A stretch of DNA of 36,135 bases from Oscillospiraceae bacterium (GTDB taxonomy: Bacteria; Bacillota; Clostridia; Oscillospirales; Ruminococcaceae), in the NCBI GenBank assembly GCA_031280965.1, contig JAITFZ010000008.1:1-36135 (forward strand), written 5' to 3'. Each line of letters starts with the position of its first letter. Position 1 is the first letter of the stretch. Of this stretch, positions 8,505 to 27,212 are shown piece by piece. Below the pieces are notes generated by a model. The model made no database searches, was not told where the DNA came from, and saw nothing but the letters and a program-made list of their open reading frames with translations. A program made the translations under genes and the position numbers.

Positions 8505-8581
8505 TTTTCATAAAATCCTTTCTTCACCAACAGGGAATGAAAACAACGTTTTACCCGTTTCAGTTATGTTTTGTTTCAACC
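8505..8581 (-). repeat. Structured leader element, copy 1 (orphan)
   Basis: This 77-base copy reads, on the minus strand, GGTTGAAACAAAA, ACTGAAACGGG, a TAAAA/TTTT hairpin, CCCTGTTGGTGAAG, then AAAGGATTTTATG. It lies immediately downstream of the muramidase gene. Its start codon (ATG 8511) opens only a 20-codon ORF that stops at 8449 inside the terminator hairpin. It therefore leads no real gene and looks like a leftover whose gene was deleted. Confidence 0.8.
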
Positions 8582-8584
8582 TTA

Positions 8585-10027
8585 CTACCTCAAATTATTA
8601 AGCCCGTGCCTTCTCAGCACCTCCGGAAAATTTATGTACGAAATATTCAAGTCAACATCGCCGTTTATACCGGGAATCCTCCCCTTGTCCGTGTACTGCC
8701 ATATATGGAAAGGTCTCTCGTAAGTAGGTCTTGAAGCCCACTGTGCTAACCAAACTGCGTATGTATCAAGAACCCGCGGGTCGATTTTAGTTTCTAAGAA
8801 GTATTTATACGAATAAAGCATGGGGAAATATCCGTTATTCATGAGAACCTCGAAAAACGCTTCCGTCATTGCGGTTATTAGTTCCATGCTCATACGTTCG
8901 TGAATTGGGTCTTCTATATCGAAAACTACAGGATATGTAAGCTCGTAACCTCTTATTACCTCTATAAGAAATTCGGCTTCCCGCCTTGCGTCCTCAACGC
9001 TTCGGGCGTAACTGTAGAAGTACACTCCTACATCAAGACCGTTAGCGAGCGCGCCCTCAATGTATTCACGGAACCGCGTATCTTCAATCATAGGACGGTC
9101 ACTATTGATGTGACCGCGGGCGGCGCGGAGCATAACAAAATCGACTCTGCCGCTGTCTGCGACCCTTGCCCAGTCTATATCGCCCTGCCAAAACGAAACG
9201 TCAATTCCGCGAAGTTCCACACGCGGCTCGTTTTCGAGAATCATGGCGGTCATCTTCTCGAACGGGTGAGGGAGCCTTACCTCGGGCGGTTCGGCAATAT
9301 CCTCGTCATTATCAATAAAAAGACCTCTCAAGGCGGTTCTGAAAGAACCCGTACCGACAATCCGCGAATCGCCGCCAAGTTTAAAGGTTCCGTGATTAAC
9401 AACATCGCCGTTTCTTGCGACCCAAAATACACCGAAGCTGAGTACAGAGCCGCTCGGCGTAATTGTAACCGCACCATGAATAATTATACTGCCGCTTACG
9501 GTATTTTCAATAGCGCCGGTTGCGGTTATAACGCTTCTTCCTGTCGTTGTTATTTCACCTGCATTACTAAAAGTTCCCAGAGAAAATATGCTTATATTGC
9601 CGGAACTTGTGAGTTCGCCGCCGGCACGAATATCCACACGACCATCAATTACGTTGACGGTTGTATCCGGGTATTGCAAAACGCTCCCTAAAACCCAAAG
9701 AGCGCCCCCTCTCCTTACATCTACGTTGGCTCTTCTTATTTCAAGCGAACCTCTTACAATCAAGTTACCTCTGATTGTAAGCTTCATGCCGCTTGTAAGC
9801 ATTAGCTTACCGCCGTCGTTTACGGTCAAAATCACGCCGTCGGGAATAATCAAGTCAGAAGAAAGGCTTACCTGCTCGTTTATGATATAGGCAGTGCCGC
9901 TCTGAAGCGGGGTTCTGCCGTTCCATTCCGCTTCCGCAGAAGACGCGGAAGATATTAACGGCAAATATGTAAGAATCAGTGCCGTCAAACAAATAAGCAC
10001 GATTGTTTTCTTTAAAATTCTTTTCAT
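8585..10027 (-). CDS. Secreted GH25 muramidase with a beta-repeat N-terminal region
   Basis: The product is 480 residues. The signal peptide is MKRILKKTIVLICLTALILT, ending near SSASSAEA. Residues ~40-240 are short Gly/Val/Ile repeats (LTIRGNLIVRGSLEIRRANV, then VDIRAGGELTSSGNISIFS) that suggest a beta-solenoid. The C-terminal GH25 (1,4-beta-N-acetylmuramidase) domain starts at RGIDVSFWQGDIDW and contains VYFYSYA, the acidic YPVVFDIEDP, AVWLAQWA and the closing FHIWQYTDKG...GDVDLN. I chose ATG 10027, which overlaps the stop of a three-codon ORF started inside leader copy 2; GTG 10054 lies within the leader. It is probably transcribed with the upstream TSCPD gene and acts on peptidoglycan outside the cell. 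Confidence 0.9.
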   Translation of the reverse strand: MKRILKKTIVLICLTALILTYLPLISSASSAEAEWNGRTPLQSGTAYIINEQVSLSSDLIIPDGVILTVNDGGKLMLTSGMKLTIRGNLIVRGSLEIRRANVDVRRGGALWVLGSVLQYPDTTVNVIDGRVDIRAGGELTSSGNISIFSLGTFSNAGEITTTGRSVITATGAIENTVSGSIIIHGAVTITPSGSVLSFGVFWVARNGDVVNHGTFKLGGDSRIVGTGSFRTALRGLFIDNDEDIAEPPEVRLPHPFEKMTAMILENEPRVELRGIDVSFWQGDIDWARVADSGRVDFVMLRAARGHINSDRPMIEDTRFREYIEGALANGLDVGVYFYSYARSVEDARREAEFLIEVIRGYELTYPVVFDIEDPIHERMSMELITAMTEAFFEVLMNNGYFPMLYSYKYFLETKIDPRVLDTYAVWLAQWASRPTYERPFHIWQYTDKGRIPGINGDVDLNISYINFPEVLRRHGLNNLR

Positions 10028-10028
10028 A

Positions 10029-10124
10029 TTTTCATAAAGTCCTTTCTTCACCAACAGAGAATAGCTTCGTTTTTAAACGAAGCTAAAACAACATTTTCCC
10101 CGTTTCAGTTATATTTGTTTCAAA
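10029..10124 (-). repeat. Structured leader element, copy 2, before the muramidase gene
   Basis: This 96-base copy contains the shared blocks GAAACAAAT, AACTGAAACGGGG, AAAATGTTGTTTT and TTCTCTGTTGGTGAAG, then AAAGGACTTTATGAAAATA. It also carries a perfect hairpin insertion, AGCTTCGTTT/AAACGAAGCT (10062-10085). ACGGGGA can pair with TTCTCTGT around the AAAA/TTTT hairpin. ATG 10035 gives Met-Lys-Ile-stop, and the stop overlaps the muramidase ATG (ATGA, 10027-10024). Confidence 0.82.
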
Positions 10125-10143
10125 GGGCGATTGTTCATCGCCC
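10125..10143 (-). terminator. Small hairpin after the TSCPD gene
   Basis: The arms GGGCGAT (plus strand 10125-10131) and ATCGCCC (10137-10143) have a 5-base loop, directly between the TSCPD stop and leader copy 2. On the minus strand it is followed only by TTTG, so it is at best a partial terminator or an RNA-processing or stability element. Confidence 0.4.
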
Positions 10144-10150
10144 CTGCATT

Positions 10151-10402
10151 TTATTCGCTAATTGCTTCTTTTAAAGCTTTTGCTAATTCTGCCGGGCATG
10201 ATGTCCCCCTGCCCTGACAACTGATGTTTTCAAGACGTTTAATAGCCTCCTCGGCGTTTGCGCCCTCAAGTAAGTTAGAGATACCCTGCGCGTTTCCGCT
10301 GCAGCCGCCGTGAAACTTCACATCGGAAATTAAACCGTCTTCAAGCGAGAAGGTGATTTTCTGAGCACAGATATTTTTGGGTTTGAATTCGTATGTTTTC
10401 AT
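10151..10402 (-). CDS. TSCPD-domain protein (TIGR03905-type)
   Basis: The product is 83 residues with the signature cysteines: CAQKITF near the N-terminus, FHGGCSGNAQGISNLLEG in the middle and CQGRGTSCPAEL near the C-terminus. The TSCPD domain also occurs at the end of some ribonucleotide reductases, where it binds metal. The free-standing version is a small uncharacterised protein common in Clostridia. The start ATG 10402 is the start codon built into leader copy 3, with AAAGGA just before it. It lies between the PHP phosphoesterase and muramidase genes on one strand. Confidence 0.85.
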   Translation of the reverse strand: MKTYEFKPKNICAQKITFSLEDGLISDVKFHGGCSGNAQGISNLLEGANAEEAIKRLENISCQGRGTSCPAELAKALKEAISE

Positions 10403-10493
10403 AAAGTCCTTTCTTCACCAACAGAGGATAGCTTCGTTTTAAAACGAAGCGAAAATGACATTTTCCCCGTTTCAGTTGTATTTTGTTTCAACC
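10396..10493 (-). repeat. Structured leader element, copy 3, before the TSCPD gene
   Basis: This 98-base copy reads GGTTGAAACAAAA, ACAACTGAAACGGGG, AAAATGTCATTTT, a perfect 20-base palindrome GCTTCGTTTTAAAACGAAGC (10431-10450), TCCTCTGTTGGTGAAG and AAAGGACTTTATG. GGTTG can pair with CAACT, ACGGGGA with TCCTCTGT (one bulge), and GAAAA with TTTTC. Here the built-in ATG (10402-10400) is the gene's own start codon. Confidence 0.85.
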
Positions 10494-10535
10494 TTGCATC
10501 TTCCTTAATTTCCTTCAAACGGGCAGACCCCGCTC

Positions 10536-11402
10536 CTACACATTTATTTCTTTTTTGCTGTTACTGTGAAAACTCAGCATCCTTTGAAGCGAAGCGGCAG
10601 GCGTCAGGTTGGAGCCGAGCGGTTTCGCTTTATGGTTATAGAAGCCGTGAAAGTCCGAGCCGCCTGTAGTTATAAGGTTGTATCTTTCGGCGATTTCGAG
10701 CAGAAGCTTTTCGTCGTTGTCCCTGATGCTCTGGTGCCAGACTTCAATTCCGTCAAGCTCGCCTTTTTCAGCCAGTTCCTCAACCAAATCAAAGTTGTCG
10801 TAAACACGGGGATGCGCCAAAACAGCGATTCCGCCGGCTGAACGTATAAGCTGAATCACGAACTTGACTTCGGGGTATTCTTCTATTTCGCGCCTTACTT
10901 CCTCGGCGCAAAGCCCGTCGTCCATATTGAACAGCTTCTTGTAAAGCCCGCCGTACAGTCTCGTGGTATGCCCGTAATCCATAAGGGCATGCATGATATG
11001 GCACTTATAAATTGCGTTGCTCCCTGACGAATACCTCGCGATATGGTCGGGCGAGATGTTGTACTTGTCAATTACTTTCCTCGCCATAATCTTACCGCGC
11101 CGCTTCCTGAAGTCGGTGGTACGCATACAAAGCCCTTCAAGGCGGTCGGGCTTTTTAGGCATATAACAGATTATATGCGCCTTTGATTTACGCGCACCGT
11201 CAAAAGCGGAAAATTCAACCGCCGGAACAACGGTAATGCCGTAACGATTCCCCAATATGCTCGAACGCGATAACGACGATAAAGTATCGTGGTCGGTAAT
11301 CGAGATACAATCTAAGGAATTGCGTTTTGCCTGGGCTATGGTTTCCTCGATTCCGAGAGAACCGTCTGATAAAGTGGTGTGGCAGTGCAGGTCAGCTTTC
11401 AT
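10536..11402 (-). CDS. PHP-domain metal-dependent phosphoesterase
   Basis: The product is 288 residues. PHP-superfamily metal ligands are visible: DLHCHTTLSDGS (~5-16), SITDHDTLSSL (~37), PAVEFSAF (~64), AVLAHPRVYD (~187) and GGSDFHG (~243). The family includes nucleoside 3',5'-bisphosphate phosphatases (YciV/RNase AM) and other phosphoesterases, and the substrate cannot be told here. I chose ATG 11402 because GAAGGAG lies just before it; the TTG at 11417 would overlap that site. It lies 67 bases downstream of the DUF624 gene, probably on the same leftward transcript. Confidence 0.87.
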   Translation of the reverse strand: MKADLHCHTTLSDGSLGIEETIAQAKRNSLDCISITDHDTLSSLSRSSILGNRYGITVVPAVEFSAFDGARKSKAHIICYMPKKPDRLEGLCMRTTDFRKRRGKIMARKVIDKYNISPDHIARYSSGSNAIYKCHIMHALMDYGHTTRLYGGLYKKLFNMDDGLCAEEVRREIEEYPEVKFVIQLIRSAGGIAVLAHPRVYDNFDLVEELAEKGELDGIEVWHQSIRDNDEKLLLEIAERYNLITTGGSDFHGFYNHKAKPLGSNLTPAASLQRMLSFHSNSKKEINV

Positions 11403-11469
11403 GCCGTACTCCTTCAATTCGTTAATAATATAACATACATTATAACATAAATTTATCGAAAAGTCAAAT

Positions 11470-12303
11470 CTATCTTATAACTTTGCCTTTGGTTTTAGGC
11501 TTGGATTTAATTTCAGCCTCGCGTCCGCCCCAGTCCTCGAAAAGAACTTCTTCCTCGCTCTCTTCCTGCGACCAGTCGGGAATTTCCGGGTTTTTTTCGC
11601 CCCGCGCTTCATAAAAAGGGGTAATGATGTATTTGGTAATTACGGGATAGGCGTTAAAAACCATCAGGAAATTAAGCCATGCAAAAGGTATGAGCGGCAG
11701 TAAAAATACCGCAAACAAAAAGAACATATATATCCCCGCCGTAAACAAAGCTATGAACAAGAGCGTGACAAGGTTGCCTTTGATTCCGAGAATGACAAGA
11801 AGCATTGAATTCTTAATGATTTGATTAAGGCTCAGCGTCAGTGTCGCGATTTGCAAATATATATAAAAGTGCATCATTAATATAAAGCAACCCGCCGCAA
11901 TTGTCATCGACATAAGAGCTAAGTTAAATAAAGTAGGCTCAACCGCGGTCAGATGGTTGTAATAGAGATATGCTATAAAAAATGCGAGAATGAAGATTAC
12001 ATCAAAAATACCGATGATAACCCCCTGCTTAAAATTTTTCTTGAAAGCCTTCCAAAACTCATCAAAGATGAATATAGGCTGTTCAAGCGTGAATTTCCGC
12101 ATTACCTGTGTCAGCGCGACCGTAGCCGGCCCGAAAGTGATTATAGGTATGCAAAAGAGGAAGTAGAGCATGTTTATATAAAAAAACTTCCAGAATTTAC
12201 GCCCGAAAAGCTCCATGAACTTAAAGAAGCGCCTTTTTTCAGGCTCGTTTTTTGAAACGCCCTTACCTGCTTTACTGTAATCGAAAAAACCGAAGAAAGC
12301 CAT
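11470..12303 (-). CDS. DUF624 (YesL-like) multi-pass membrane protein
   Basis: The product is 277 residues. After a charged N-terminus there are about six hydrophobic segments, for example INMLYFLFCIPIITFGPATV (the conserved first DUF624 helix), GIFDVIFILAFFIAYLYY, a helix near AAGCFILMMHFYIYL, and IYMFFLFAVFLLPLIPFAWL. The cytoplasmic tail is acidic then basic. DUF624 proteins often neighbour carbohydrate transport genes in Firmicutes but have no proven function. A GGGAG site precedes ATG 12303, and a near-consensus promoter drives this gene and probably the PHP gene behind it. Confidence 0.83.
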   Translation of the reverse strand: MAFFGFFDYSKAGKGVSKNEPEKRRFFKFMELFGRKFWKFFYINMLYFLFCIPIITFGPATVALTQVMRKFTLEQPIFIFDEFWKAFKKNFKQGVIIGIFDVIFILAFFIAYLYYNHLTAVEPTLFNLALMSMTIAAGCFILMMHFYIYLQIATLTLSLNQIIKNSMLLVILGIKGNLVTLLFIALFTAGIYMFFLFAVFLLPLIPFAWLNFLMVFNAYPVITKYIITPFYEARGEKNPEIPDWSQEESEEEVLFEDWGGREAEIKSKPKTKGKVIR

Positions 12304-12378
12304 AGTTTTTTATCTCCCGCATAGATTATTACAATCACGGACGCGCCCTGCGCGCCTCTGTATTTATGTACTTATATA

Positions 12379-12407
12379 ATTATACAGCATTTCGGATTTA
12401 TTTGCAA
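12379..12407 (-). promoter_or_regulatory. Predicted promoter of the DUF624-PHP-TSCPD-muramidase group
   Basis: On the minus strand, TTGCAA (12407-12402) and TATAAT (12384-12379) have a 17-base spacer. The leader of ~70 bases contains a GC-rich GGCGCGCAGGGCGCG stretch able to fold. It is back-to-back with the mnmA promoter. Confidence 0.72.
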
Positions 12408-12417
12408 GCAAATTATC

Positions 12418-12446
12418 TTGTTTTTGACGTGAAATTATGGTAGAAT
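12418..12446 (+). promoter_or_regulatory. Possible mnmA promoter
   Basis: TTGTTT (12418-12423) and TAGAAT (12441-12446) have a 17-base spacer and lie 20 bases before ATG 12467. TTGACG at 12424 is an alternative -35 but lacks a well-placed -10. Confidence 0.45.
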
Positions 12447-12466
12447 AAATTTTGAGGTGCAATTCA

Positions 12467-13522
12467 ATGAAAAATATAATGCTTGCTATGAGCGGTGGAG
12501 TAGACAGTTCAGTTGCTTATATTCTGCTTAAAGACAGTTTCGGTGAGTCTAAAATCATAGGCGCAACGATGAGCTTGTTCGATGGCGGCGGAGAAGCCGC
12601 CGAAGAAGCGCGGGCAGTTACCGGACGCTTTGGAATCCCGCATGAAGTTTTTGACTTAAAAGAGCGGTTCAGGCAAGAGGTAATTGATAAATTCGTGCAA
12701 TCGTATGCAAACGGCGAAACCCCGAATCCCTGTGTCGCCTGCAATAAGTACATTAAATTCGGCGCGTTTTTCGAGGCGGCGAGCGCTTTGAATTGCGGAT
12801 TAATGGCGACCGGACATTATGCGCGTGTTGAATATGACGCAGGCAGCGGACGTTTTCTGCTAAAAAAAGCGGTTTCTGCAAAAGACCAGTCTTACGTGCT
12901 TTATAACTTAACGCAGGAGCAGTTGGGGCGCACGGTTTTCCCGCTTGGTAATCTTGAAAAAAAGCAGGTTCGGGAAATTGCGCTCGGACACGGCTTAGCG
13001 AATTCGGAAAAGCCCGACAGTCAGGACATCTGTTTTATACCGGACGGAGATTATGCAAGGTATATCGCAAACTATACGGGGCGAGTTTTTGAAGGCGGCG
13101 TTATTGCTGACAGGAACGGCAAAATCCTCGGACGACACAGCGGTATAATTAATTACACGGTCGGTCAGCGGAAAGGGCTCGGATTATCAGCGCCGACGCC
13201 GCTTTACGTAATCGGAAAAGACGCACAAACCAACACTGTCATAGCCGGAGAAAATTCGGAGTTGTTTTCTGACAGGCTTATTGCGGGAGAGGTGAACTGG
13301 ATTGCGTTCGGGAAACTCGGCGGAACTCTGCGGCTTTATGCACGAACACGTTATTCACAGCCGGAACAGCCCTGCACGGTTTCGCCGATTGATGAAAATA
13401 AAGCGAGCGTTATATTCGACAGCCCGCAAAGGGCGATTACACCCGGACAGAGCGTAGTTTTCTACGACGGAGATGTTGTTGTCGGCGGCGGGACGATACA
13501 ATCGGAAATAAATAACTGTTAA
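12467..13522 (+). CDS. mnmA: tRNA-specific 2-thiouridylase MnmA
   Basis: The product is 351 residues, close to the usual ~360. It thiolates U34 of tRNA Lys, Glu and Gln using ATP and a persulfide. Visible motifs are the PP-loop LAMSGGVDSS (~5-14), the catalytic Cys in NPCVACNKYIKFG (~91), GHYARVEY, KDQSYVLYNLTQEQL, the second catalytic Cys in SQDICFIPDGDY (~187) and TVGQRKGLGLS. ATG 12467 is chosen because AGGTG lies 8 bases before it; the TTG at 12452 contains that site. It converges with the SGNH hydrolase gene, whose stop is 4 bases away, and no terminator separates them. Confidence 0.95.
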   Translation: MKNIMLAMSGGVDSSVAYILLKDSFGESKIIGATMSLFDGGGEAAEEARAVTGRFGIPHEVFDLKERFRQEVIDKFVQSYANGETPNPCVACNKYIKFGAFFEAASALNCGLMATGHYARVEYDAGSGRFLLKKAVSAKDQSYVLYNLTQEQLGRTVFPLGNLEKKQVREIALGHGLANSEKPDSQDICFIPDGDYARYIANYTGRVFEGGVIADRNGKILGRHSGIINYTVGQRKGLGLSAPTPLYVIGKDAQTNTVIAGENSELFSDRLIAGEVNWIAFGKLGGTLRLYARTRYSQPEQPCTVSPIDENKASVIFDSPQRAITPGQSVVFYDGDVVVGGGTIQSEINNC

Positions 13523-13526
13523 CTAA

Positions 13527-14411
13527 CTAAGAATTTTCAATAGTGAATTGAATATAGCTTAATATGGCTTTATATGCACCGCTCTTGAAGTGCAGTCCGT
13601 CCGATTCGGCGTATTCCTGCGCGAAATAGCCCGTGCTGTCCTTTAGAATCTCACCAACATCTATGAGGAAAAAATTGTTAGCTGAAGAGGCTTCTTTAAG
13701 CAAGTTATTGTAATTGTTTATATCTTCCATATTTTCCGGTCTTGACTGCTCGTGTGCGGCGGTTACGGGTGAAATGGTCAGTACTATAACCTCGGAGTCC
13801 GGAACCTTGTTTTTTAATGTATCAATGAACGTGAGCATTCGCGGAATCATATCAGCGCCTGTCGAGTATCCTATTTCATTCGAGCCGAGCATTATGAAAA
13901 TGCGCGCCGGCTTCATCCTTACCGCTTTGCTTAAAACAGTTTCATCGTCTATTTCAGTAGTTAAAACAGAAACCAAATTAAGCCCGACCTTTGCAAAGAC
14001 GTTGCCGGCGGGAATGTGTCCGTACAGATGAATCCCCGTCATAATCGAATCGCCTATAAAAAGGTTGTTCGCGAAGAATTCCTTATCGTAATCTCCGGGA
14101 ATAAAGACAAAAGCGTCATTGCTTCCTGTTTCCGGCGGCGTTGTGGTGGCGCGGGTCATACTCGGAGGAGGAGTGGTTGTTATTATCGGCTCGGGGTCTT
14201 CGGAAGGAATGTTGTCCGCTTCCGTATTCGCGTTGTTTTCGGGCGGCGGTGTCCGGGAAGGGGGTGCTTCTTCCTCCGATGTTATGTAGCGATAAATAAA
14301 AAACAACATAAGAAACAAAACCCCCGCGATGAGAACATTGAGTAAGACTATAGCGGGAGTAAGCGAAACTTCTTTCTTTCCGTAGGGAATATAAGAGCGC
14401 GGACGCGGCAC
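13527..14411 (-). CDS. Membrane-anchored SGNH/GDSL hydrolase
   Basis: The product is 294 residues from GTG 14411, which has AGGTGA 5 bases upstream; GTG 14420 is an alternative without a site. A cytoplasmic stub is followed by one membrane helix (LTPAIVLLNVLIAGVLFLML) and a Thr/Pro-rich linker (PPSRTPPPENN, ITTTPPPSMT). The extracellular domain carries the SGNH blocks: NLFIGDSIMTG (block I Ser), a Gly in block II, IMLGSNEIG (block III Asn) and SDGLHFKSGAY (block V Asp and His). Such enzymes deacylate or esterify cell-wall or carbohydrate substrates; the substrate is not readable. Confidence 0.87.
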   Translation of the reverse strand: MPRPRSYIPYGKKEVSLTPAIVLLNVLIAGVLFLMLFFIYRYITSEEEAPPSRTPPPENNANTEADNIPSEDPEPIITTTPPPSMTRATTTPPETGSNDAFVFIPGDYDKEFFANNLFIGDSIMTGIHLYGHIPAGNVFAKVGLNLVSVLTTEIDDETVLSKAVRMKPARIFIMLGSNEIGYSTGADMIPRMLTFIDTLKNKVPDSEVIVLTISPVTAAHEQSRPENMEDINNYNNLLKEASSANNFFLIDVGEILKDSTGYFAQEYAESDGLHFKSGAYKAILSYIQFTIENS

Positions 14412-14499
14412 TATGCTCACCTGCCTGTGTTGAATTCTTTATATATGTCTAAGTATACAACAAAATTTTAATTAACGCAAGGAAAATTTGAAAAAAGCC

Positions 14500-14528
14500 T
14501 TTACAAGCTCAAATATTTATGATAGAAT
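14500..14528 (+). promoter_or_regulatory. queT promoter
   Basis: TTTACA (14500-14505) and TAGAAT (14523-14528) have a 17-base spacer. Transcription would begin just at the 5' edge of the preQ1 pseudoknot. Confidence 0.75.
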
Positions 14529-16749: not shown

Positions 16750-17442
16750 ATGAAACACGGCAAGAAATACAACGAGAGTTCAAAACTCGTAGACAGAAAC
16801 AAGCAGTACGAAACGGCTGAAGGGCTTCAGCTCATCTGCGATTTACCAAAGGCAAAGTTTGATGAAACAGTTGAAATGCACATAAGACTCGGTGTTGACT
16901 CCCGTCACGCAGACCAGCAGGTCAGAGGCGCGGTAGTGCTTCCCAACGGCACAGGTAAGAAAGTCAGGACGTTAGTATTCGCAAAAGGCGATAAAATTAA
17001 GGAAGCCGAAGACGCAGGAAGCGATTTTGTTGCCGATGATGATACAGTCGCGAAGATTCAGGGCGGCTGGATGGACTTTGACGTTGTAATCGCAAGCCCC
17101 GATATGATGGGTGTTGTCGGGCGTCTCGGTAAAGTGCTTGGTCCGAGAGGGCTTATGCCCAACCCGAAAGCCGGAACGGTTACGCCTGATGTAGGCAAAG
17201 CCGTCACCGAAGCTAAGGCGGGTAAAATCGAATACAGACTTGACAAAACTAATATCATTCATTGCCCGATAGGTAAGGTTTCGTTCGGCAGAGAAAAGCT
17301 TGAAGAAAACTTCGATACACTGATTGGCGCCGTCGTCAAGGCGAAACCCTCCGCCGCAAAGGGTCAGTATATAAAAAGTTGCTCTGTTTCTTCAACAATG
17401 GGACCGGGCATAAAAATCAATACGGCAAAATATATTGTGTAA
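16750..17442 (+). CDS. rplA: 50S ribosomal protein L1
   Basis: The product is 230 residues, full length. Visible motifs include [43 protein letters not shown] and [13 protein letters not shown]. It forms the L1 stalk at the E site and in many bacteria represses its own operon by binding the mRNA. AAGGAGGATAAT precedes ATG 16750. The usual followers rplJ and rplL are absent; instead a perfect palindrome ends the operon. Confidence 0.97.
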
Positions 17443-17453
17443 TATAATAAATT

Positions 17454-17489
17454 AACACAAAATTCTTGCATATGCAAGAATTTTGTGTT
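17454..17489. terminator. 36-bp perfect palindrome ending the rplA operon
   Basis: The 18-base arms are AACACAAAATTCTTGCAT (17454-17471) and its exact complement (17472-17489), without a separate loop. A-rich and T-rich flanks make it plausible as a two-way terminator. It also overlaps a promoter for the next gene, so it could double as an operator. Confidence 0.7.
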
Positions 17490-17494
17490 ATACT
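17466..17494 (+). promoter_or_regulatory. Predicted promoter of the HPr-like gene, embedded in the palindrome
   Basis: TTGCAT (17466-17471) and TATACT (17489-17494) have a 17-base spacer. The -35 box is at the palindrome centre and the -10 begins on its last base. Confidence 0.55.
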
Positions 17495-17542
17495 GATATA
17501 TAAGGGCGAATTGCAAAACGCCCGTGAAAGGACGTAAAGTTT

Positions 17543-19726: not shown

Positions 19727-21589
19727 TTGGAAAATAATTCAAACCGTGTAATAGCTTTAGCCGGAAACCCTAACGTAGGAAAATCCACTGTTTTTAATCA
19801 CCTGACCGGTATGAAACAACACACCGGCAACTGGCCCGGCAAAACAGTTGTAAACGCTAAAGGCATACATCGCTTCAGGGGTCATAATTACATACTCGTT
19901 GATTTGCCCGGTACATATTCAATCATGGCACATTCGGCAGAAGAGGAGATTGCAAGGGACTTTATCCTGCATGGCGAGACGGACGCGACCGTTGTGGTAT
20001 GCGACGCCACCTGCCTGGAGCGCAATCTCAACCTTGTGCTTCAAATCATAGAACTTACACCGAATGTAATAGTTTGCGTAAATTTGTTAGATGAAGCCAA
20101 AAAGAAGAAGATTTCCATTGACCTTTCTGCATTGGAAAGGGAGCTTGGCGTACCGGTTGCGGGAACAAATGCGCGCGGCGGGAAAGGTCTTACCGAGCTT
20201 ATGGAAAAGGTGGCGGCTGTTTGCGCGGGAGAAATTAAAACCGCCCCGAGTAAAGGCAGGTTTGATACAGATGAAGAACTCATCAGACACTGGCAGTTTG
20301 CCGAAGAAATCGCGGCGTCTGTAACCCCGTATTCAGGCGTGAATCTCAGTAAGCGTGACCGTAAATTAGACAGGATTCTCACAAATAAACTGACAGGCAT
20401 CCCCATTATGCTGGCGCTTCTCTGCGCTGTATTCTGGCTCACTATTACCGGTGCCGAATACCCCTCCGAAGCGCTGTTCGCCGGTTTGTTCCGGTTCGGC
20501 GACCTTCTGACTGATTTTTTTCTCCGGCTCGGGACTCCGGAATGGGTTCACGGGGTGCTCGTTTTGGGAGTTTACCGTGTTTTGGCGTGGGTTGTGGCGG
20601 TTATGCTGCCGCCGATGGCGATTTTCTTCCCGCTCTTCACTTTGCTTGAAGATTTTGGCTATTTACCGAGGGTGGCTTTTAATTTAGACCATCATTTCAA
20701 AAAAGCAAAGGCTTGCGGGAAGCAGGCACTGACGATGTGTATGGGATTCGGGTGCAATGCTGCGGGTGTAATCGGATGCCGTATTATAGATTCGCCGCGT
20801 GAAAGGCTGATTGCGATTATTACGAATAACTTTGTGCCGTGTAACGGCAGATTTCCAACCCTAATCGCGATTATTTCCATGTTCTTTGTAGGCGTTGTGG
20901 GCGGTGTTTTTGACACGCTTTTATCAACATTAATCCTGACCGGCGTGATTGTGCTTGGAATTGTTCTTACCTTTTGGGTTTCCCGTTTCCTTTCCGGAAC
21001 CATTTTGAAAGGCGAGGCTTCTTCTTTTACACTTGAACTCCCGCCTTACCGTACACCGCAGATTGGCAGGGTAATAATACGCTCAATTTTCGACCGAACA
21101 TTGTTCGTGCTGGGAAGAGCCGTGATTGTGGCGGCTCCCGCCGGGCTTGTTATTTGGCTTCTCGCCAACATCACGGCAGGAGACACGAGCCTGCTGAATC
21201 ATTGTTCGTCTTTTCTTGACCCGTTCGCAAGATTATTAGGATTAGACGGTGTTATCCTGCTTGCGTTTATCTTAGGGTTTCCGGCAAACGAAATCGTCTT
21301 CCCCATAATTATTATGGCGTATATGTCAACCGGAAGCATTTTGGAATTAGACAGTCTTGCGGAATTGCGGTCACTATTAACGGAAAACGGCTGGACTACC
21401 GTAACGGCAGTTTCGACCATGCTGTTTTGCCTGTGTCATTGGCCCTGTTCCACAACATGCCTTACTATCAAGAAAGAAACCGGAAGTATAAAATGGACGG
21501 CACTCTCAATGATTGTCCCGACTGTAATCGGGTTGCTCGTATGTTTTCTGTTTGCGACCGCAGCGCGTTTATTTTTCACTTTGTTTTAA
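19727..21589 (+). CDS. feoB: Ferrous iron transporter FeoB
   Basis: The product is 620 residues from TTG 19727, somewhat short for the family. The N-terminal G domain has G1 [11 protein letters not shown], switch I around [14 protein letters not shown]3 VDLPGTYS and G4 [11 protein letters not shown]. The membrane part has the FeoB core motifs [14 protein letters not shown] and [12 protein letters not shown], and Cys-rich helices near the end ([14 protein letters not shown]). It moves Fe2+ across the cytoplasmic membrane. The ribosome binding site is weak (GTGGGTAGA), so translation may depend on feoA. Its last 14 bases overlap the 3' end of the converging chemoreceptor gene. Confidence 0.95.
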
Positions 21590-23618
21590 ATTTTTCAATC
21601 AGGTATTGCAGGCGCACCGACTGATTACTCATTTCATCAGATGCGGCCGCGCCGTCCTCCGCGGTCGCACTGGTATGCTGAACCACCTGCGCCACTTTAG
21701 TGATGCCTTCGTTAATCTGCTCAATACCGGCTGATTGTTCCTTACTGGACTGCGCTATTTCCGAAATGATTTGACTGCTTTGGTTAATTCCGGAAACTAT
21801 CTCGGACAGGCTGGCGGCGGTTTCGCCGGCTATACGGGTGCCGAGGTCGGCTTTTTCTATTGAGTTTTTTATCATGCTTCCGGTATCTTTTGCCGCTTCT
21901 GCGCTTTTAGAGGCGAGATTACGTACTTCTTCGGCAACAACCGCAAAGCCCTTGCCGTGCTGTCCGGCGCGGGCGGCTTCAACTGCGGCGTTAAGAGCTA
22001 AGATATTGGTCTGAAACGCAATATCGTCAATTACTTTTATAACCTTTTGAATGTTTTGGCTGGCTTCATTAATTCCCCTGACCGCCGCTATCATTTCGTC
22101 CATCTGATGGTTGCCTTTTTCGGCGTTGTTTTTTATCGTGTTGGCGAGCGCGGCGGCTTTACCCGCCATGTCCGCATTGTTTTTGGTTTTTTGCGCGATT
22201 TCGGAAATAAAGGAAGACAGTTGTTCGATAGAGGCGGACTGCTCTGCCGAGTCCTGCGATAACATCTGACTGCTCTCGGCGACATTCTTTGCTCCGATTG
22301 TAACGTGGGTACTTACGGATTTAATTTCCTGCAATATGTTTTTTAGGTCGGCTGTAACTTTTTTCATATCCGTTACATCCTGGTCAATCTCAATATAACC
22401 CACCTGCTTACCGGATGCATTCGTTAACGCCGCAATATCAACCTTGCAAAAATAACCATCGGGCGTGGTGTATTCCGTTACTAACTCTCCCCTCTTAAAA
22501 CATTCCACCCCGCATTGAGGAGTGTTGCAGGCGGTGCAGGCGTGAGCCCAGGCGTTACACTGCCGCCCTTTTAAGTCCTTCCATTCTTTTCCGATTGCGT
22601 CAAGACCTGTTTTATTCAAGAAAGTAAAGTTCATATTATTATCAATAACGGACACAACAAAAGGAATTGCGTTAAGAATAGATTCGTACCAGTAAATCTT
22701 TCGGTTAATCCAGTTTGACAGCACAAACAGAATTGGCACGATTATCAGCATAATCACGGCAATTGCGGTAATTATCTTCCAGAGAGTCGCCAAAACGCTG
22801 TCCATTATAATTGAAGTCGGTCTGAGGGAAACCACATACCAGCCGGTGGTTTCAAGCGGCGTGCCTATGTAAATATAACCGCTTTCAGTATAAATACCAT
22901 CTTTTACGATAGATTCAAACATATTTTTCAGGCTTCCGGATTCAACGGTGTTGATGTTTTTAAAGGTCGCATCCGCATTCGGGGCAAAAGCGGGGTCGGG
23001 GTGCATTAGAATATCTCCGTTTGTGTCGAGCAGAAAAGATGTGCTGACCGAATCTGCATTGGCTTGTCTGACGTAATGCACCATAGTGTCAAGCGGAATA
23101 TCAATAGAAACAACTCCGGCGTCCGCATTGCTGTTATTAACGGTACGCACGATAGCGAAAGCAAGCTGATTCAGGCTCCTATCATAATAAGGCGGCGGGT
23201 AAACAATCTGTCCGGGCTGTCCGGCGGCGGCTCTGAACCATGGGCGCTGAGTGGCTTCCCACGTTTCGTCCGGTTCCCATCCCATGCCGAAGATTCCGGT
23301 ATTGTCGGCGAAGCCCGCATAAACATCGGAAACATCGGCACTTACATTCACTATATCGGTGAAGTACGCTTTCGCGAACTCCCGGCTTGTTTCCGGGTTT
23401 CGCAGCAGAATTGCGTTGTTTTGCGCTAACTCCCCTTTTGAACTAATCCACCCGTCAATTTTATTCATCAGCGATATGTTTTCCTGTTTCATAATCCGGG
23501 TGCTTTCGTTATAAATAGAGGAATATGTAATAACGCACATAATGATTGTGAGAACTATGAAACACGCCACGATAAGACAGAGAACGGGAACTACGATATT
23601 ATGTTGCTTTTTAAACAT
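21576..23618 (-). CDS. Methyl-accepting chemotaxis protein with dCache and Cys-rich PAS domains
   Basis: The product is 680 residues. Membrane helix 1 is at ~10-32. The extracellular dCache region (~40-270) contains [25 protein letters not shown] and TGWYVVSL, the typical double-Cache pattern for small ligands. Helix 2 is at ~283-308. A PAS domain ([20 protein letters not shown]) carries the cysteine cluster [20 protein letters not shown], then the signalling hairpin with [20 protein letters not shown] (tip region). I see no clear HAMP. It would send attractant or redox signals to CheA. AGGAG precedes ATG 23618. The cysteines could bind metal or an Fe-S cluster, which is inference. Confidence 0.92.
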
Positions 23619-23739
23619 TTTCGTAAAACTCCTTTTATTTTTGATTATTGGGGGTTATCACATCTCGTTGCATTTTTTTGTCTGAAACGCCGAATACGAA
23701 CAGGAAAACACCCGTTCGCATCCGAACTATTATATTATC

Positions 23740-23768
23740 ATGTTAACAGAGAATTCTTGATTTGTCAA
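23740..23768 (-). promoter_or_regulatory. Possible chemoreceptor promoter
   Basis: On the minus strand, TTGACA (23768-23763) and TAACAT (23745-23740) have a 17-base spacer, followed by a GTTCG-GATG-CGAAC hairpin in the leader. The -10 match is only 4 of 6. A flagellar-sigma promoter was not found. Confidence 0.38.
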
Positions 23769-23821
23769 TAGCTTTTATATGTATTTTTATGAAATATAAT
23801 TTTTTACGACAAAATGACAGC

Positions 23822-24220
23822 TTACGCCTTCGGCTTATTGTTCTTTGCCGCGAAATAAATTTCCGTCACACATGTAAATAACGCCTGCTTATCCTCCTCC
23901 GACAGCTTGTCCCCGGCGAAAAGCTCCCGGGATTTATCAATATAAAACATCGCGTCCAAAATCCCGCGCCCCTCCGAGGTCGCGCCGAAATAAAACCTTT
24001 CCTCACTCGTAAGTGTCAGGCTTTTCGCGTCGTCAGTCAGGAAAACCATATCGGTGTCAAGCGTTTCGGCGATTTTGAGAAGAACCGACTTCTTAGGTTC
24101 ACGCGTTCCGGAAACGTAATTAGCCAAAGCACGGTAGGTTATACCGATTTTTTCGGCGAACTCGGTTTTTTTCATACCGTTTCTCCGTATAAGAACCTCA
24201 AGTTTCTCGCTGAATTTCAT
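23822..24220 (-). CDS. XRE-family transcriptional regulator
   Basis: The product is 132 residues. An N-terminal Cro/CI-type helix-turn-helix spans ~5-60 (KTEFAEKIGITYRALANYVS, GTREPKKSVLLKIAETLDTD). The C-terminal half (~65-132) is an unassigned helical domain ending YFAAKNNKPKA. I chose ATG 24220, with GAGGG 7 bases before it, over ATG 24244, which lies inside the inverted repeat at the promoter. That repeat suggests the protein represses itself. It is divergent from argG, but nothing shows it controls the arg genes. Confidence 0.85.
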   Translation of the reverse strand: MKFSEKLEVLIRRNGMKKTEFAEKIGITYRALANYVSGTREPKKSVLLKIAETLDTDMVFLTDDAKSLTLTSEERFYFGATSEGRGILDAMFYIDKSRELFAGDKLSEEDKQALFTCVTEIYFAAKNNKPKA

Positions 24221-24238
24221 GATTTCCCTCGCTTTCCC

Positions 24239-24264
24239 GTTCATGATTATATTATAGCATGAAC
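24239..24264. promoter_or_regulatory. Inverted repeat over the XRE gene -10 box, likely autoregulatory operator
   Basis: The arms GTTCATG (24239-24245) and CATGAAC (24258-24264) are separated by 12 bases that include the ATTATA complement of the -10 box. The position, between -10 and the start of the regulator's own gene, is typical of an autorepressor site. Confidence 0.6.
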
Positions 24265-24278
24265 AAAAAAAATGTCAA
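24251..24278 (-). promoter_or_regulatory. Promoter of the XRE regulator gene
   Basis: On the minus strand, TTGACA (24278-24273) and TATAAT (24256-24251) are perfect hexamers with a 16-base spacer that includes a run of eight T. Confidence 0.78.
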
Positions 24279-24358
24279 TATACGCAGCAAAATTTTTACA
24301 ATATACATTAAATATACTAATTAAATCGTATAATATGCAGTTTTAATTATATTATTCC

Positions 24359-24386
24359 TTGACAACAGCACAAAATAGTGTATAAT
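24359..24386 (+). promoter_or_regulatory. Promoter of the arginine operon
   Basis: TTGACA (24359-24364) and TATAAT (24381-24386) have a 16-base spacer, 45 bases before argG. ATTCATA at 24387-24393 resembles half of an ArgR box, but I could not find a convincing full box. Confidence 0.8.
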
Positions 24387-24431
24387 ATTCATAAGCAGGG
24401 GTGTATTCAGCGTCCTCAGAAAGAAGAAGCA

Positions 24432-25628
24432 ATGAAAATAAAAAAGGTGGTACTCGCCTATTCGGGCGGGCTTGATACTTCGATTATAATTCCGTGGTTG
24501 CGGGAAAATTACGATAACTGCGAAGTTATATGCATGGCGGCGAATGTCGGGCAGGACGCGGAGCTTGAGGGTCTTGAAGCGCGTGCGCTTCAAACCGGCG
24601 CGTCAAAACTGTATGTAGAGAATCTTCAGGATGAATTCGTGAACGATTTTATTTTCCCGACACTTAAAATGGGTGCTAAGTACGAGGGTTATCTGCTGGG
24701 GACTTCGTTTGCAAGACCGGTAATCGCGAAAAGGCTTGTTGAAATCGCAAGAGCCGAAAACGCCGATGCAATTTGTCACGGCTGTACCGGCAAAGGCAAT
24801 GACCAGGTGCGTTTTGAGCTTACAGTCATGGCGCTTGCTCCTGAAATGAAAATAATCGCACCTTGGAGAATCTGGGATATTAAAAGCCGCGAACAGGCTA
24901 TTGAATACGCGGAATCACGCGGAGTACCATTAAAAATTAACCGCGAAACGAATTATTCAAAAGATATGAATCTATGGCATTTATCGCACGAGGGATTAGA
25001 TTTGGAAGACCCCGCGAACGAGCCGCAATATAATAAAGAAGGCTTTCTTGAACTCGGTGTTTCGCCTGAAAACGCGCCCGACGAGCCGATTTATGTAACA
25101 ATCGGATTTGAAAAAGGCGTGCCTGTTTCGCTTGACGGCGAGCGAATGAGCGGCACGGAGCTAATAAAGGCGCTGAACAAAGTCGGCGGCGGGAACGGCA
25201 TAGGGCTGTATGACGTGGTTGAAAACCGCCTTGTCGGAATGAAGTCGCGGGGTGTTTATGAAACGCCGGGCGGCACGATTTTGTACCACGCGCATGAAGT
25301 GCTTGAAAGTATATGTCTTGACAGAGAAACACAGCATTATAAAACCGCAATGGCGCTTAAATACGCCGAGCTTGTTTATAACGGGCAGTGGTATACGCCG
25401 CTTCGCACCGCGATGGACGCATTCGCAGACAGTACGCAGAAAACAGTCACGGGCGAGGTAAAATTAAAACTCTACAAAGGTAATATCATAAACGCCGGCA
25501 TTACATCGCCTTATTCGCTGTACAGCGAGGAAATCGCATCATTCGGCGACACGGCGTATGAGCAGAAAGACGCATATAACCAAAAAGATGCGGAGGGTTT
25601 TATAAACCTTGTTCGGACTGCCGGTTAA
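24432..25628 (+). CDS. argG: Argininosuccinate synthase
   Basis: The product is 398 residues, the normal length. It joins citrulline and aspartate with ATP. The N-terminal P-loop is [18 protein letters not shown], followed by [15 protein letters not shown] (citrulline/aspartate site), [15 protein letters not shown] and [17 protein letters not shown] chose ATG 24432, where the family alignment begins, with a modest AGAAGAAG site; the upstream in-frame ATG 24378 lies inside the promoter. It is the first gene of the arg cluster. Confidence 0.96.
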
Positions 25629-25675
25629 GGTGAAGGCGCTATTAGACAAAAGCAGGGGTGAATAACATTGAATAA

Positions 25676-25804
25676 CATTCTCAATATGTTGCCGCAATTA
25701 AAATTTTTGTTTTAAAGGATAATGAAGGCGGAAATGCTTTCTGGGAGAAGCTTGGTTTCGCGGAAAATGAGTTGGCGGTTACGCGGACATTTGCAGGCGG
25801 GTAG
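25676..25804 (+). pseudogene. C-terminal remnant of a GNAT acetyltransferase
   Basis: An open frame of 42 codons without a start encodes QYVAAIKIFVLKDNEGGNAF, then WEKLGFAENELAVTRTF and a stop. The AFWEKLGF motif is the end of the GNAT fold. It fills the argG-argH gap. A direct repeat GAATAACATT (25660-25669 and 25670-25679) sits at its 5' edge, where the missing domain was probably deleted. Confidence 0.7.
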
Positions 25805-25812
25805 AGGTATTT

Positions 25813-27132
25813 ATGGATAAGTTATGGAAAGGGCGTTTTTCAAAAGAAACCGACAGCAAAGTCAACGATTTCAATTCATCTTTCAGGTTCGACTGCCGAA
25901 TGTGGCGCGAGGATATTGAGGGCAGCATGGCTCATGCTGAAATGCTCGGGAAATGCGGGATTATTTCGCAGTCTGACAGTGAGAGGATTATTGAGGGGCT
26001 TGAGCGAATTAAAAAAGATATTGAAAGCGGTAAGCTTCAATTTGATTCTAATGCGGAAGATATTCACACGTTCATTGAAACGGAATTAACCGCACAAATC
26101 GGCGAAGCGGGCAAAAAACTGCACACCGCACGTTCGCGCAATGACCAGACAGCAACAGATTTAAGATTATATTTACGGCGGGAGATTGAAGAAATTCAAG
26201 AGCTTTTGCATGATTTGCGAGTTACCGTTTGTGCTGTTGCCGATGAACACGAAAATACAATAATGCCGGGTTACACACATCTGCAAAGAGCGCAGCCGGT
26301 AACGTTCGCAAGCCACTTAGATGCGTATGCGGCTATGTTTTGGCGTGATGATGACAGGCTTGATGATGTAATCGGGCGGATGATGAAGCTTTGCCCCCTC
26401 GGATGTGCCGCTTTAGCGGGAACCACTTATCCTATTGACCGGGAAATGACTGCTGAATCGCTTGGATTTAAGTACCCCTGTGTTAATACACTTGACGGGG
26501 TTTCCGACCGTGATTTTTGCATTGAAATAGTAAGTGCGCTCGCTATAATTATGATGCATTTATCGCGATTTTCCGAGGAGATAATTCTGTGGTGTTCGTG
26601 GGAATTTAGGTTTATTGAGCTTGACGATGCATATGCTACAGGCTCCAGTATTATGCCGCAGAAGAAAAACCCCGATATTGCCGAGCTTGTCCGCGGAAAG
26701 GCGGCGCGGGTATTCGCGGATTTGCAAACGCTTTTAGTTATGATGAAAGGGCTTCCTTTGGCTTATAATAAGGATATGCAGGAGGACAAGGAAGCGATTT
26801 TCGACGCTGTTGATACAGTTAAAATGTGCCTTGAGGTGTTTGCGCCTATGCTTGCGACCATGACGGTAAACAAGGCGCGAATGAGAGAAGCGGCGGCGCA
26901 GGGCTTTATTAACGCAACGGATTGCGCTGATTATCTTGTGAAAAAGGGAATGGCGTTCCGTGACGCTTATAAAATAACGGGAGAATTAGTCGCGCTGTGT
27001 ATAGAAAAAAACACAGATTTGGAGAATTTGCCGCTTGATGAATATAAAGGCAAAAGCGGATTATTCAGCGAGGACATTTTTGAGGCAATAAGGCTCGAAA
27101 CCTGTGTGCGGAACAGAATCGGGAAGGATTGA
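25813..27132 (+). CDS. argH: Argininosuccinate lyase
   Basis: The product is 439 residues, within the usual range. It cleaves argininosuccinate to arginine and fumarate. The N-terminus LWKGRFSKETDSKVNDFNSS, the middle HTARSRNDQTATDLRLYLR, the TH-containing PGYTHLQRAQPVTF and the family signature GSSIMPQKKNPD are all present. TAGAGGT lies before ATG 25813. Leader copy 4 begins 3 bases after its stop. Confidence 0.96.
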   Translation: MDKLWKGRFSKETDSKVNDFNSSFRFDCRMWREDIEGSMAHAEMLGKCGIISQSDSERIIEGLERIKKDIESGKLQFDSNAEDIHTFIETELTAQIGEAGKKLHTARSRNDQTATDLRLYLRREIEEIQELLHDLRVTVCAVADEHENTIMPGYTHLQRAQPVTFASHLDAYAAMFWRDDDRLDDVIGRMMKLCPLGCAALAGTTYPIDREMTAESLGFKYPCVNTLDGVSDRDFCIEIVSALAIIMMHLSRFSEEIILWCSWEFRFIELDDAYATGSSIMPQKKNPDIAELVRGKAARVFADLQTLLVMMKGLPLAYNKDMQEDKEAIFDAVDTVKMCLEVFAPMLATMTVNKARMREAAAQGFINATDCADYLVKKGMAFRDAYKITGELVALCIEKNTDLENLPLDEYKGKSGLFSEDIFEAIRLETCVRNRIGKD

Positions 27133-27135
27133 AAA

Positions 27136-27212
27136 GGTTAAAATAAAATACAACCGAGATGGGAAAATGTCGTTTTCATTCATCGTTGGTGAAGAAAGGA
27201 CTTTATGAAAAC
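27136..27212 (+). repeat. Structured leader element, copy 4, before the GNAT gene in the arg cluster
   Basis: This 77-base copy reads GGTTAAAATAAAA, ACAACCGAGATGGG, a GAAAATGTCGTTTTC hairpin, TTCATCGTTGGTGAAG and AAAGGACTTTATGAAAACA. GGTT pairs with AACC, and GATGGG with TTCATC: different bases from the other copies, but pairing is kept. It lacks the extra hairpin. ATG 27205 gives Met-Lys-Thr-stop, whose TGA overlaps the GNAT ATG (ATGA 27213-27216). It is the only copy on the plus strand and lies ~17 kb from the others. Confidence 0.82.

What the first reader, a model, noticed from the sequence alone, without database searches (positions are those of the whole stretch)
8505..27212. Four copies of a structured, start-codon-bearing leader element of unknown class
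Copies at 8505-8581, 10029-10124, 10396-10493 (minus) and 27136-27212 (plus) share blocks GAAACAAAA, AACTGAAACGGGG, AAAA-NGTNN-TTTT, CTGTTGGTGAAG and AAAGGACTTTATGAAAA. Each can form a GGTT/AAC(C/T) stem (weak in copy 2), a stem between the ACGGGG region and the CTCTGT region, and an AAAA/TTTT hairpin. In copy 4 the bases differ (GATGGG with TTCATC) but pairing is kept, although shifted by two bases. They sit before unrelated genes (TSCPD, muramidase, GNAT), always right after an upstream gene. I do not recognise the class: it may be a dispersed RNA leader, a riboswitch, or a small mobile element that brings a ribosome binding site.
Basis: partly seen in the sequence, partly recalled or inferred. 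Interest (0 to 1): 0.72.

Follow-up and report, generated by a model that had tools for sequence, protein, structure and literature searches.

The report
Mobile leader inserted at gene starts
A repeat of about 75 to 100 bases, present in at least a hundred copies or remnants in this gut bacterium, appears to have inserted itself again and again into the tiny gap between a gene's ribosome-binding site and its start codon, bringing a replacement ribosome-binding site with it; how it moves is unknown.

Summary
The four copies are real, and the genome holds far more: 81 arrays with 102 copies or remnants in the stretches fetched. At three genes compared across relatives (pfkA, gpmI, gmk) the element sits between the native Shine-Dalgarno (SD) and the start codon, where relatives have a plain SD-start. 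In three genomes, 100 of 128 arrays with a matched 5' end have an SD just upstream (random positions 20.6%); 140 of 155 arrays run straight into an ORF (random 24.5%); 138 of 139 such starts are ATG. The element brings its own AGAAAGGA SD. Sequence-diverged families share a fold (S1-S2-S3; covariation strong on a model-fitted alignment, modest on an independent one). They were found in 12 of 71 genus genomes and, in a less sensitive search, in no other of 394 order genomes. No Rfam family matches the element. Reverse transcriptase was not detected in 8 of the 12 carriers, Y1 transposase in none, so the mover is unknown.

The parts
8503..8583 (-). copy 1, short form, followed by no gene (20-codon ORF only); SD-like TTGAGGTAGT directly upstream
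8516..8521 (-). SD core AAAGGA of copy 1
   Evidence: sequence
10028..10124 (-). copy 2, long form with palindrome, directly before the muramidase ATG; the 5' AAG is missing
10040..10045 (-). SD core AAAGGA of copy 2
   Evidence: sequence
10064..10083 (-). palindromic insert of the long form, copy 2
   Evidence: I12
8585..10027 (-). gene after copy 2: glycosyl hydrolase family 25 (muramidase), PF01183; its G012 homologue (57% identity) also has an element upstream
10395..10495 (-). copy 3, long form; its own ATG (10402-10400) is the start codon of the TSCPD gene
10407..10412 (-). SD core AAAGGA of copy 3
   Evidence: sequence
10431..10450 (-). palindromic insert GCTTCGTTTTAAAACGAAGC of copy 3
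10151..10402 (-). gene after copy 3: TSCPD domain, PF12637
27134..27212 (+). copy 4, short form, directly before the GNAT ATG
27195..27200 (+). SD core AAAGGA of copy 4
   Evidence: sequence
27213..27641 (+). gene after copy 4: GNAT acetyltransferase, PF13508

Best explanation
A family of very short (about 75-100 nt), apparently non-coding and non-autonomous dispersed elements that insert, in sense orientation, into the gap between the native Shine-Dalgarno and the start codon of protein genes. SHOWN: the position, by element-free orthologous sites at three genes and by flank statistics in three genomes; high copy number; tandem arrays; several sequence families with shared blocks and a shared fold; detection in only 12 of 71 genomes of one genus. 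INFERRED: after insertion the gene is translated from the element's own AGAAAGGA SD, so the host gene survives and the native SD becomes a relic. In the G000/G012 families the element's own ATG (well spaced from its SD) would start a three-codon ORF, ATG AAA AYA TGA, whose stop overlaps the gene's ATG and could couple the two by termination and re-initiation. UNKNOWN: the enzyme that moves it, and whether the start-site bias comes from target choice, from selection against other sites, or from a benefit to the host.
For: pfkA: element-free cggagaagaaat|ATG in L086 and SD-ATG in L087; tggagaagtatt|element|ATG in L088; two tandem copies in G000; a sequence-different family at the same place in L093 (R2 E 2e-13 there). 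gpmI: element in G000 only, none in the other 11 of 12 printed. gmk: element in G000 (long form), G012 (short form) and G032 (old copy, E 1e-4), a possible minimal relative in G017 (E 0.023), none in the other 10 of 14. SD of 4 or more nt within 18 nt upstream of arrays with a matched 5' end: 45 of 63 in G000, 28 of 31 in G012, 27 of 34 in G039, against 20.6% of 4000 random positions; an ORF of at least 60 aa (or open to the locus end) at the 3' end in 140 of 155 arrays, against 24.5% with at least 60 aa at random positions. Starts 138 ATG: 1 TTG, background 139 ATG: 39 other, p 5e-10. In six further carrier genomes 49 of 53 array-terminal copies run into an ORF of at least 60 aa. SD core differs from consensus in 5 of 282 cells against 344 of 3854 elsewhere. 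Fold: own S1 arms pair better than swapped arms, 158 against 146.9 +- 3.6 of 216, p 0.0017; on A4, 108 both-sided cells against 42.1 in shuffles, 0 of 500 as high, slid versions at most 31. Model R2, built without the G000 short form, finds it at E about 4e-7.
Against: Movement was not seen; only species-level comparisons were possible, and gene conversion could contribute. No mover is known: reverse transcriptase not detected in 8 of 12 carriers, Y1 transposase in 0 of 12. 15 of 155 arrays have no such ORF behind them, window copy 1 among them. Alignment A4 was fitted to the model's structure, which inflates pair counts; on MAFFT alignment A3 the signal is weaker (14 of 500 shuffles reach the covariation score, 19 the both-sided cells, 256 the number of both-sided pairs). 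The full S1-S2-S3 fold is the predicted minimum-energy fold in only 5 of 23 representatives, and the short-form consensus of this genome does not fold better than shuffles (z -0.13).
Confidence: 0.73

Rival explanations
1. A host regulatory leader (riboswitch-like or protein-bound) that was copied to many genes and is kept because it controls their translation; the SD-ATG position reflects selection, not targeting.
For: Fold with compensatory changes; sense orientation at the start codon; 11 homologous gene pairs carry it in two of three genomes; in G000-type families the arm TTTTCAT could pair with ATGAAAA and might mask a start (read from the sequence).
Against: Eight downstream genes checked with Pfam are unrelated (PFK, iPGM, guanylate kinase, DnaB, a phosphoribosyltransferase, TSCPD, GH25, GNAT); tandem arrays and partial copies; found in 12 of 71 genus genomes while orthologues elsewhere do without it; no Rfam family on the element.
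Confidence: 0.2
2. A non-autonomous relative of IS200/IS605 or REP/REPIN elements, moved as single-stranded DNA by a HuH Y1 transposase; read on the other strand it inserts 3' of TTCAT, and repeated insertion at one site makes tandem arrays.
For: Hairpins, fixed orientation, no evident target duplication; in G000 the tandem junctions are mostly GAAAA(T/C)|AAG; ATGAA preference in G000/G012/G039 (83 of 111 against 43 of 139, p 4e-12).
Against: Y1_Tnp (PF01797) in 0 of 12 carrier genomes at E 1e-6, though in 15 of the other 59. No ATGA preference in six other carriers (17 of 46 ATG starts). ATGAA alone does not explain the choice of starts: outside elements a script counted 1103 ATGAA sites inside ORFs, 165 intergenic non-start and 111 start-like in 353 kb.
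Confidence: 0.2
3. A SINE-like retroelement copied from RNA by a reverse transcriptase, 3' end first.
For: 27 of 155 arrays begin with a copy whose 5' end is not matched, against one copy with a 5' end only in the G000/G012/G039 loci; the target looks like a feature of mRNA (SD plus start codon).
Against: RVT_1 (PF00078) not detected at E 1e-8 in 8 of 12 carriers, among them the copy-rich G006, G039, G073, G032 and G058 (some of these genomes are incomplete). Only 6 of those 27 arrays have an SD upstream, about background, so many look like later deletions or decay, and selection for the SD end would explain the asymmetry. Some of the 27 are merely diverged or internally deleted.
Confidence: 0.1
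4. A mobile upstream ORF: TTG at the 5' end is translated from the native SD into a peptide of about 22 residues, coupled to the gene.
For: TTG sits at a plausible distance from the native SD; a TTG-started frame is open to the element end in 24 of 31 G012, 22 of 34 G039 and 27 of 63 G000 arrays.
Against: Early stops in many copies (23 TTG copies in G000, 8 in G039, 3 in G012); families read the shared core in different frames (by eye); openness is highest in G012, whose copies are the most uniform, as expected without selection.
Confidence: 0.08

Closest known systems
BOX, RUP and SPRITE repeats of Streptococcus pneumoniae (PMC3049150, abstract read)
   Same: Small interspersed structured repeats, probably parasitic, confined to a few related species, likely to affect co-transcribed genes.
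   Different: The abstract reports no insertion between SD and start codon; I made no sequence comparison with them.
REP/REPIN elements with RAYT/TnpAREP transposases (PMC3116915 and PMC8266576, abstracts read)
   Same: High-copy miniature non-autonomous elements with hairpins.
   Different: [quoted passage not shown] here sites are start codons, orientation is fixed, and no Y1_Tnp was found in carriers.
TAACTGA repeats of Beggiatoaceae (PMC4679880, abstract and search passages read)
   Same: Most sets in one genome end within a few nt upstream of start codons of unrelated genes, in forward orientation.
   Different: Those are heptamer direct repeats with little SD character; here a folded unit of about 75-100 nt carries its own SD.
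IS200/IS605-derived miniature elements (general knowledge)
   Same: Hairpins, no target duplication, oriented insertion next to a short motif.
   Different: No Y1 transposase found in carriers; an SD context is not expected.

Membership tests
REP/REPIN | RAYT (Y1-type transposase) in the genome | tested here: not met
   PF01797 in 0 of 12 carriers at E 1e-6; some carriers are incomplete genomes
REP/REPIN | two inverted REP sequences with a tag motif such as GTAG | not tested
   no call looked for the tag; the fold found is S1 enclosing S2, then S3
IS200/IS605-derived miniature element | Y1 transposase present to move it | tested here: not met
IS200/IS605-derived miniature element | fixed short target motif on one side | tested here: inconclusive
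   ATGAA enriched in G000/G012/G039, no ATGA enrichment in six other genomes
Riboswitch or known cis-regulatory RNA | match to an Rfam family | tested here: not met
   no gathering-level match on the element in the window or in 12 relative loci; at E up to 5, copies 2 and 3 gave only a DapZ hit, E 3.3, far below gathering
Riboswitch or known cis-regulatory RNA | downstream genes share a pathway | tested here: not met
   8 genes checked with Pfam are unrelated
Riboswitch or known cis-regulatory RNA | covarying RNA structure | tested here: met
Retroelement | reverse transcriptase available | tested here: not met
   RVT_1 not detected in 8 of 12 carriers at E 1e-8
TAACTGA repeats | direct repeats of TAACTGA | tested here: not met
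   some copies contain a single TAACTGA (window copies 1 and 2), none of the 47 in A1 as a direct repeat, by eye
BOX/RUP/SPRITE | sequence relation to the pneumococcal repeats | not tested
   no pneumococcal sequence was compared

The most novel reading that the evidence does not exclude
A new kind of mobile DNA whose target is the translation start itself: it recognises the SD-to-ATG gap (perhaps through mRNA, the ribosome, or pairing of its TTTTCAT arm with ATGAA) and replaces the ribosome-binding site it disables, so that it can occupy essential genes; moved by machinery not yet known.
Probability: 0.3. Interest if true: 0.9.

Novelty: new variant of a known kind. Interest (0 to 1): 0.74.

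Why it matters
If right, this is a mobile repeat that rewires translation initiation of many genes (74 arrays with an ORF behind them in the fetched part of G000 alone), core metabolic and replication genes included, without breaking them. It would make 'how can a genome tolerate a mobile element inside its core genes' directly testable, point to an unknown mobilising enzyme in gut Clostridia, and offer natural series of ribosome-binding-site replacements in orthologous genes.

Tried and rejected
Rfam on the window (only a tRNA), on copies 2 and 3 at E up to 5 and on 12 relative loci (only an unrelated THF riboswitch in L059): nothing for the element. RNAalifold on A1: a weak, different fold. 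Peptide-coding reading: rejected for early stops and differing frames. Reverse transcriptase and Y1 transposase as movers: RVT_1 in 4 of 12 carriers, Y1_Tnp in 0 of 12. An autonomous version with a gene between the two ends: not seen in the fetched G000/G012/G039 loci; the single 5'-only copy (L113) is followed by an unrelated gene, named from recall. Phage and plasmid collections (blastn) and viral contigs (two exact patterns): no match. Ten literature searches (only for the MAG names) found no description of a repeat that inserts between SD and start codon; subscription journals are mostly not held. nhmmer returned nothing and was replaced by blastn. Rows dropped: 6 of 55 sequences without a recognisable 5' block before the swap test, which then used 24 representatives of the remaining 49; the G058-B group (L176, L179, L182, L209), L189 and the L178 copy of A2 were left out of A3 because MAFFT misaligned their S1 arm, and another L178 copy entered A3 shifted by six bases.

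Limits: the genome search scores a capped number of candidates per genome (12 to 69 in the DNA and RNA-model searches, 12 in the order search), so copy counts are minima and 'no other of 394 genomes' is less sensitive than the genus search. At least one more genome may carry copies: L092 (WRLV01), E 1.3e-4. The SD-age trend is weak: 20 of 22 in the youngest identity class, 80 of 106 in the rest. SD conservation is partly biased because copies were found by similarity. The background for start codons uses ORFs whose SD-supported start was chosen by script. In one search the array count admits ORFs open to the locus end, the random control does not.
Full report
THE OBSERVATION. Four copies are present as described. 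Copies 1 to 3 are on the minus strand (8503-8583, 10028-10124, 10395-10495) and copy 4 on the plus strand (27134-27212). They end in GAAGAAAGGA(C/T)TTTATGAAAA followed by T or C. Copies 2 and 3 are a long form with a palindrome in the middle; copies 1 and 4 a short form. Copy 2 is followed at once by the start codon of a GH25 muramidase gene and copy 4 by that of a GNAT gene; copy 3 lends its own ATG to a TSCPD gene (for the families). Copy 1 is followed only by a 20-codon ORF in the gap between two convergent gene ends.

COPY NUMBER. The window is a whole contig of a 2.0 Mb genome in 36 contigs. Searches with the long and the short form gave 74 and 61 matches (hairpin self-matches included in the first; scored candidates capped). 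In the stretches I fetched around them there are 81 arrays with 102 copies or remnants: 64 single, 13 double, 4 triple. Two other genomes of the genus are also rich: G012 (33 arrays, 38 copies fetched) and G039 (41 arrays, 53 copies fetched).

WHERE IT SITS. In most cases the element lies directly before a protein gene, in sense orientation. At pfkA, relative L086 reads cggagaagaaat|ATG without the element; L088 reads tggagaagtatt|AAGTTTG...GAAAAT|ATG with it; L087 has an SD-ATG without it; G000 has two tandem copies there; L093 (a contig of the same length as one of G012) has a copy of a different family there. L091 gives only a doubtful match there (E 0.052). At gpmI, G000 alone of the 12 genomes printed has it. 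At gmk, G000 has a long form, G012 a short form and G032 an old diverged copy (E 1e-4), G017 a possible minimal relative of 58 nt (SD, TTTGAAAG...CTTTCAAA hairpin, AGAAAGG, ATG; E 0.023), and the other 10 of 14 printed have none. The simplest reading is that the element has entered the gap between the native SD and the native start codon.

STATISTICS. Of arrays with a matched 5' end, 45 of 63 (G000), 28 of 31 (G012) and 27 of 34 (G039) have at least four SD bases within 18 nt upstream, mostly 3 to 8 nt from the element; 20.6% of 4000 random positions do. An ORF of at least 60 codons (or open to the locus end) starts at the 3' end in 74 of 81, 30 of 33 and 36 of 41 arrays, against 24.5% (at least 60 codons) at random positions. 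The start codon is ATG in 138 of 139 arrays with an ORF of at least 60 codons, whereas SD-supported starts of genes without an element in the same loci are 139 ATG, 23 TTG, 16 GTG (p 5e-10). In these three genomes the genes that start one base after the element read ATGA in 99 of 111 and ATGAA in 83 of 111, against 77 and 43 of 139. In six other carrier genomes 49 of 53 array-terminal copies run into an ORF of at least 60 codons (46 ATG, 2 TTG, 1 GTG), without an ATGA preference (17 of 46 ATG starts, some of them the element's own ATG). In 353 kb of G000, outside elements, a script counted 1103 ATGAA sites inside ORFs, 165 intergenic ones that are not starts and 111 start-like ones, so the motif alone does not explain the choice of starts.

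OTHER FAMILIES AND STRUCTURE. Queries with two diverged copies found related families in further genomes of the genus, with a different middle but similar blocks: AAGTTTGAAA, a GGGAAAA core, an arm TTTYA, then (type I) a GCAC-NTTT-GTGC hairpin and AGAAAGGA. The fold is a long-range stem S1 (GTTTGAAAx with xTTTCAAA) around hairpin S2, then hairpin S3, then the SD. It is the predicted minimum-energy fold, with the SD unpaired, in five of 23 representatives (G058-B, G058-C, G073-a, -b, -c); z is -2.5 to -3.8 in five (G058-B, G058-C, G073-b, G073-c, G032) and -2.7 in the G017 sequence, while most others, the G000 forms included, are near shuffles. Own arms of S1 pair better than arms swapped between 24 representatives (158 of 216 against 146.9 +- 3.6, p 0.0017 at fixed linker; the larger excess with the best linker is inflated by that choice; S3 gave no information). 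In MAFFT alignment A3 one S1 pair shows AU, GU, CG, GC and UG, with a modest overall signal. A covariance model R2 built from A3 gave 118 matches in the 79 loci searched; on that alignment 13 of 17 pairs have both-sided changes (6 of 500 shuffles as many), with 108 such cells against 42.1 in shuffles (0 of 500 as many) and at most 31 when the partner is slid. That alignment leans towards the structure. Whether the fold acts in RNA or in single-stranded DNA is not decided.

DISTRIBUTION. Model R1 of the G000 forms rang in 3 of 60 genus genomes. R2 rings in 12 of 71: G006 76, G039 69, G012 62, G000 58, G073 48, G032 35, G058 27, G003 10, G068 5, G074 2, G075 2, G017 1 (numbers limited by a candidate cap). 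G035, whose gpmI is 89% identical to that of G000, has none. In 394 genomes of the order only G000 rang, with fewer candidates scored. G012, G039 and G058 hold contigs of the same length as contigs of JAITFV01, WRCY01 and WRKM01, named Oscillospiraceae MAGs; the codes Th196, Lab288 and Emb289 appear in papers on termite-gut MAGs such as PMC7024585 (search listing only). No match in phage, plasmid or viral collections.

HOW IT MAY WORK. The SD core of the copies is among the best kept stretches: 5 of 282 cells differ from consensus against 344 of 3854 elsewhere (the TTTT block is even more invariant, 0 of 188). The upstream SD is a little commoner next to the youngest copies (20 of 22 against 80 of 106). 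I infer that translation now starts from the element's SD and that the native SD is a relic. In G000/G012 families the element's ATG begins a three-codon ORF whose stop overlaps the gene's ATG when the gene starts ATGA, which suggests coupling; other families do not share this. The TTG-started frame at the 5' end is not conserved.

HOW IT MAY MOVE. Unknown. Reverse transcriptase was found in 24 of 71 genomes but in only 4 of the 12 carriers (G000, G012, G074, G017), not in G006, G039, G073, G032 or G058. Y1 transposase was found in 15 of 71, none a carrier. Several carriers are incomplete (71 to 88%). The fixed orientation, the tandem junctions (in G000 mostly GAAAA(T/C)|AAG; in G039 also TATG|TTTG) and the lack of an evident target duplication recall single-strand transposition, but the enzyme is missing and the SD context would be unexplained. 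In 27 of 155 arrays the first copy has no matched 5' end (truncated, internally deleted or diverged), while one copy has a 5' end only; since only 6 of those 27 have an SD upstream, later decay plus selection for the 3' end explains this better than reverse transcription. Eleven homologous gene pairs carry elements in two of the three genomes, from inheritance, conversion or repeated insertion.

COMPARISON. Nearest in kind are small interspersed repeats: BOX, RUP and SPRITE (PMC3049150, abstract), REPINs (PMC3116915, abstract) and REP with TnpAREP (PMC8266576, abstract). Nearest in position are the TAACTGA repeats of Beggiatoaceae, most of which end a few bases before start codons in one genome (PMC4679880, abstract and passages) but are heptamers with little SD character. 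None is a member match on the features tested. I know of no repeat described as inserting between SD and start codon and replacing the SD, and ten searches of an incomplete library listed none.

VERDICT. A real, strong and unusual feature: most likely a structured mobile leader that lands at translation starts. I rate it a new variant of a known kind (miniature dispersed elements), with a fair chance that its targeting or mobiliser proves to be a kind of its own.

Noticed in passing
window 17442-17501: 60-base inverted repeat (83% complementary 30-nt arms, no spacer) near the end of an ORF
   Followed up: partly
window 10125-10143: GGGCGATTGTTCATCGCCC hairpin abutting the 5' end of copy 2, after the TSCPD gene
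   Followed up: no
window 33775-33870: Imperfect tandem repeat, spacing 18-21 bases
   Followed up: no
L254 (G017), upstream of gmk: 58-nt element-like insertion between GCGGAGGAC and the start codon with a perfect TTTGAAAG/CTTTCAAA hairpin; weak R2 match (E 0.023); ATG stands on both sides
   Followed up: partly
L091 3932-3993, upstream of pfkA: Doubtful R2 match (E 0.052) ending in AGAAAGGCATGG before the start codon; perhaps an old copy in another named MAG (WRMK01)
   Followed up: partly
L092 6444-6496: R2 match (E 1.3e-4) in a further named MAG (WRLV01)
   Followed up: no
L297 (G039): Four-copy tandem array whose junctions read ATG|TTTGAAA or ATG|TTTAAAA instead of AAG|TTTGAAA
   Followed up: no
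L283:1202 (G006) and L176 (G058): Downstream genes that appear to start with TTG AAA at the junction where another element copy would begin
   Followed up: no
L113 (G000) 710-1510: Only 5'-only copy seen; a zinc-ribbon-like gene (named from recall) lies between it and the next array
   Followed up: partly
L059 2726-2840: THF riboswitch (RF01831) in G039, unrelated to the element
   Followed up: no
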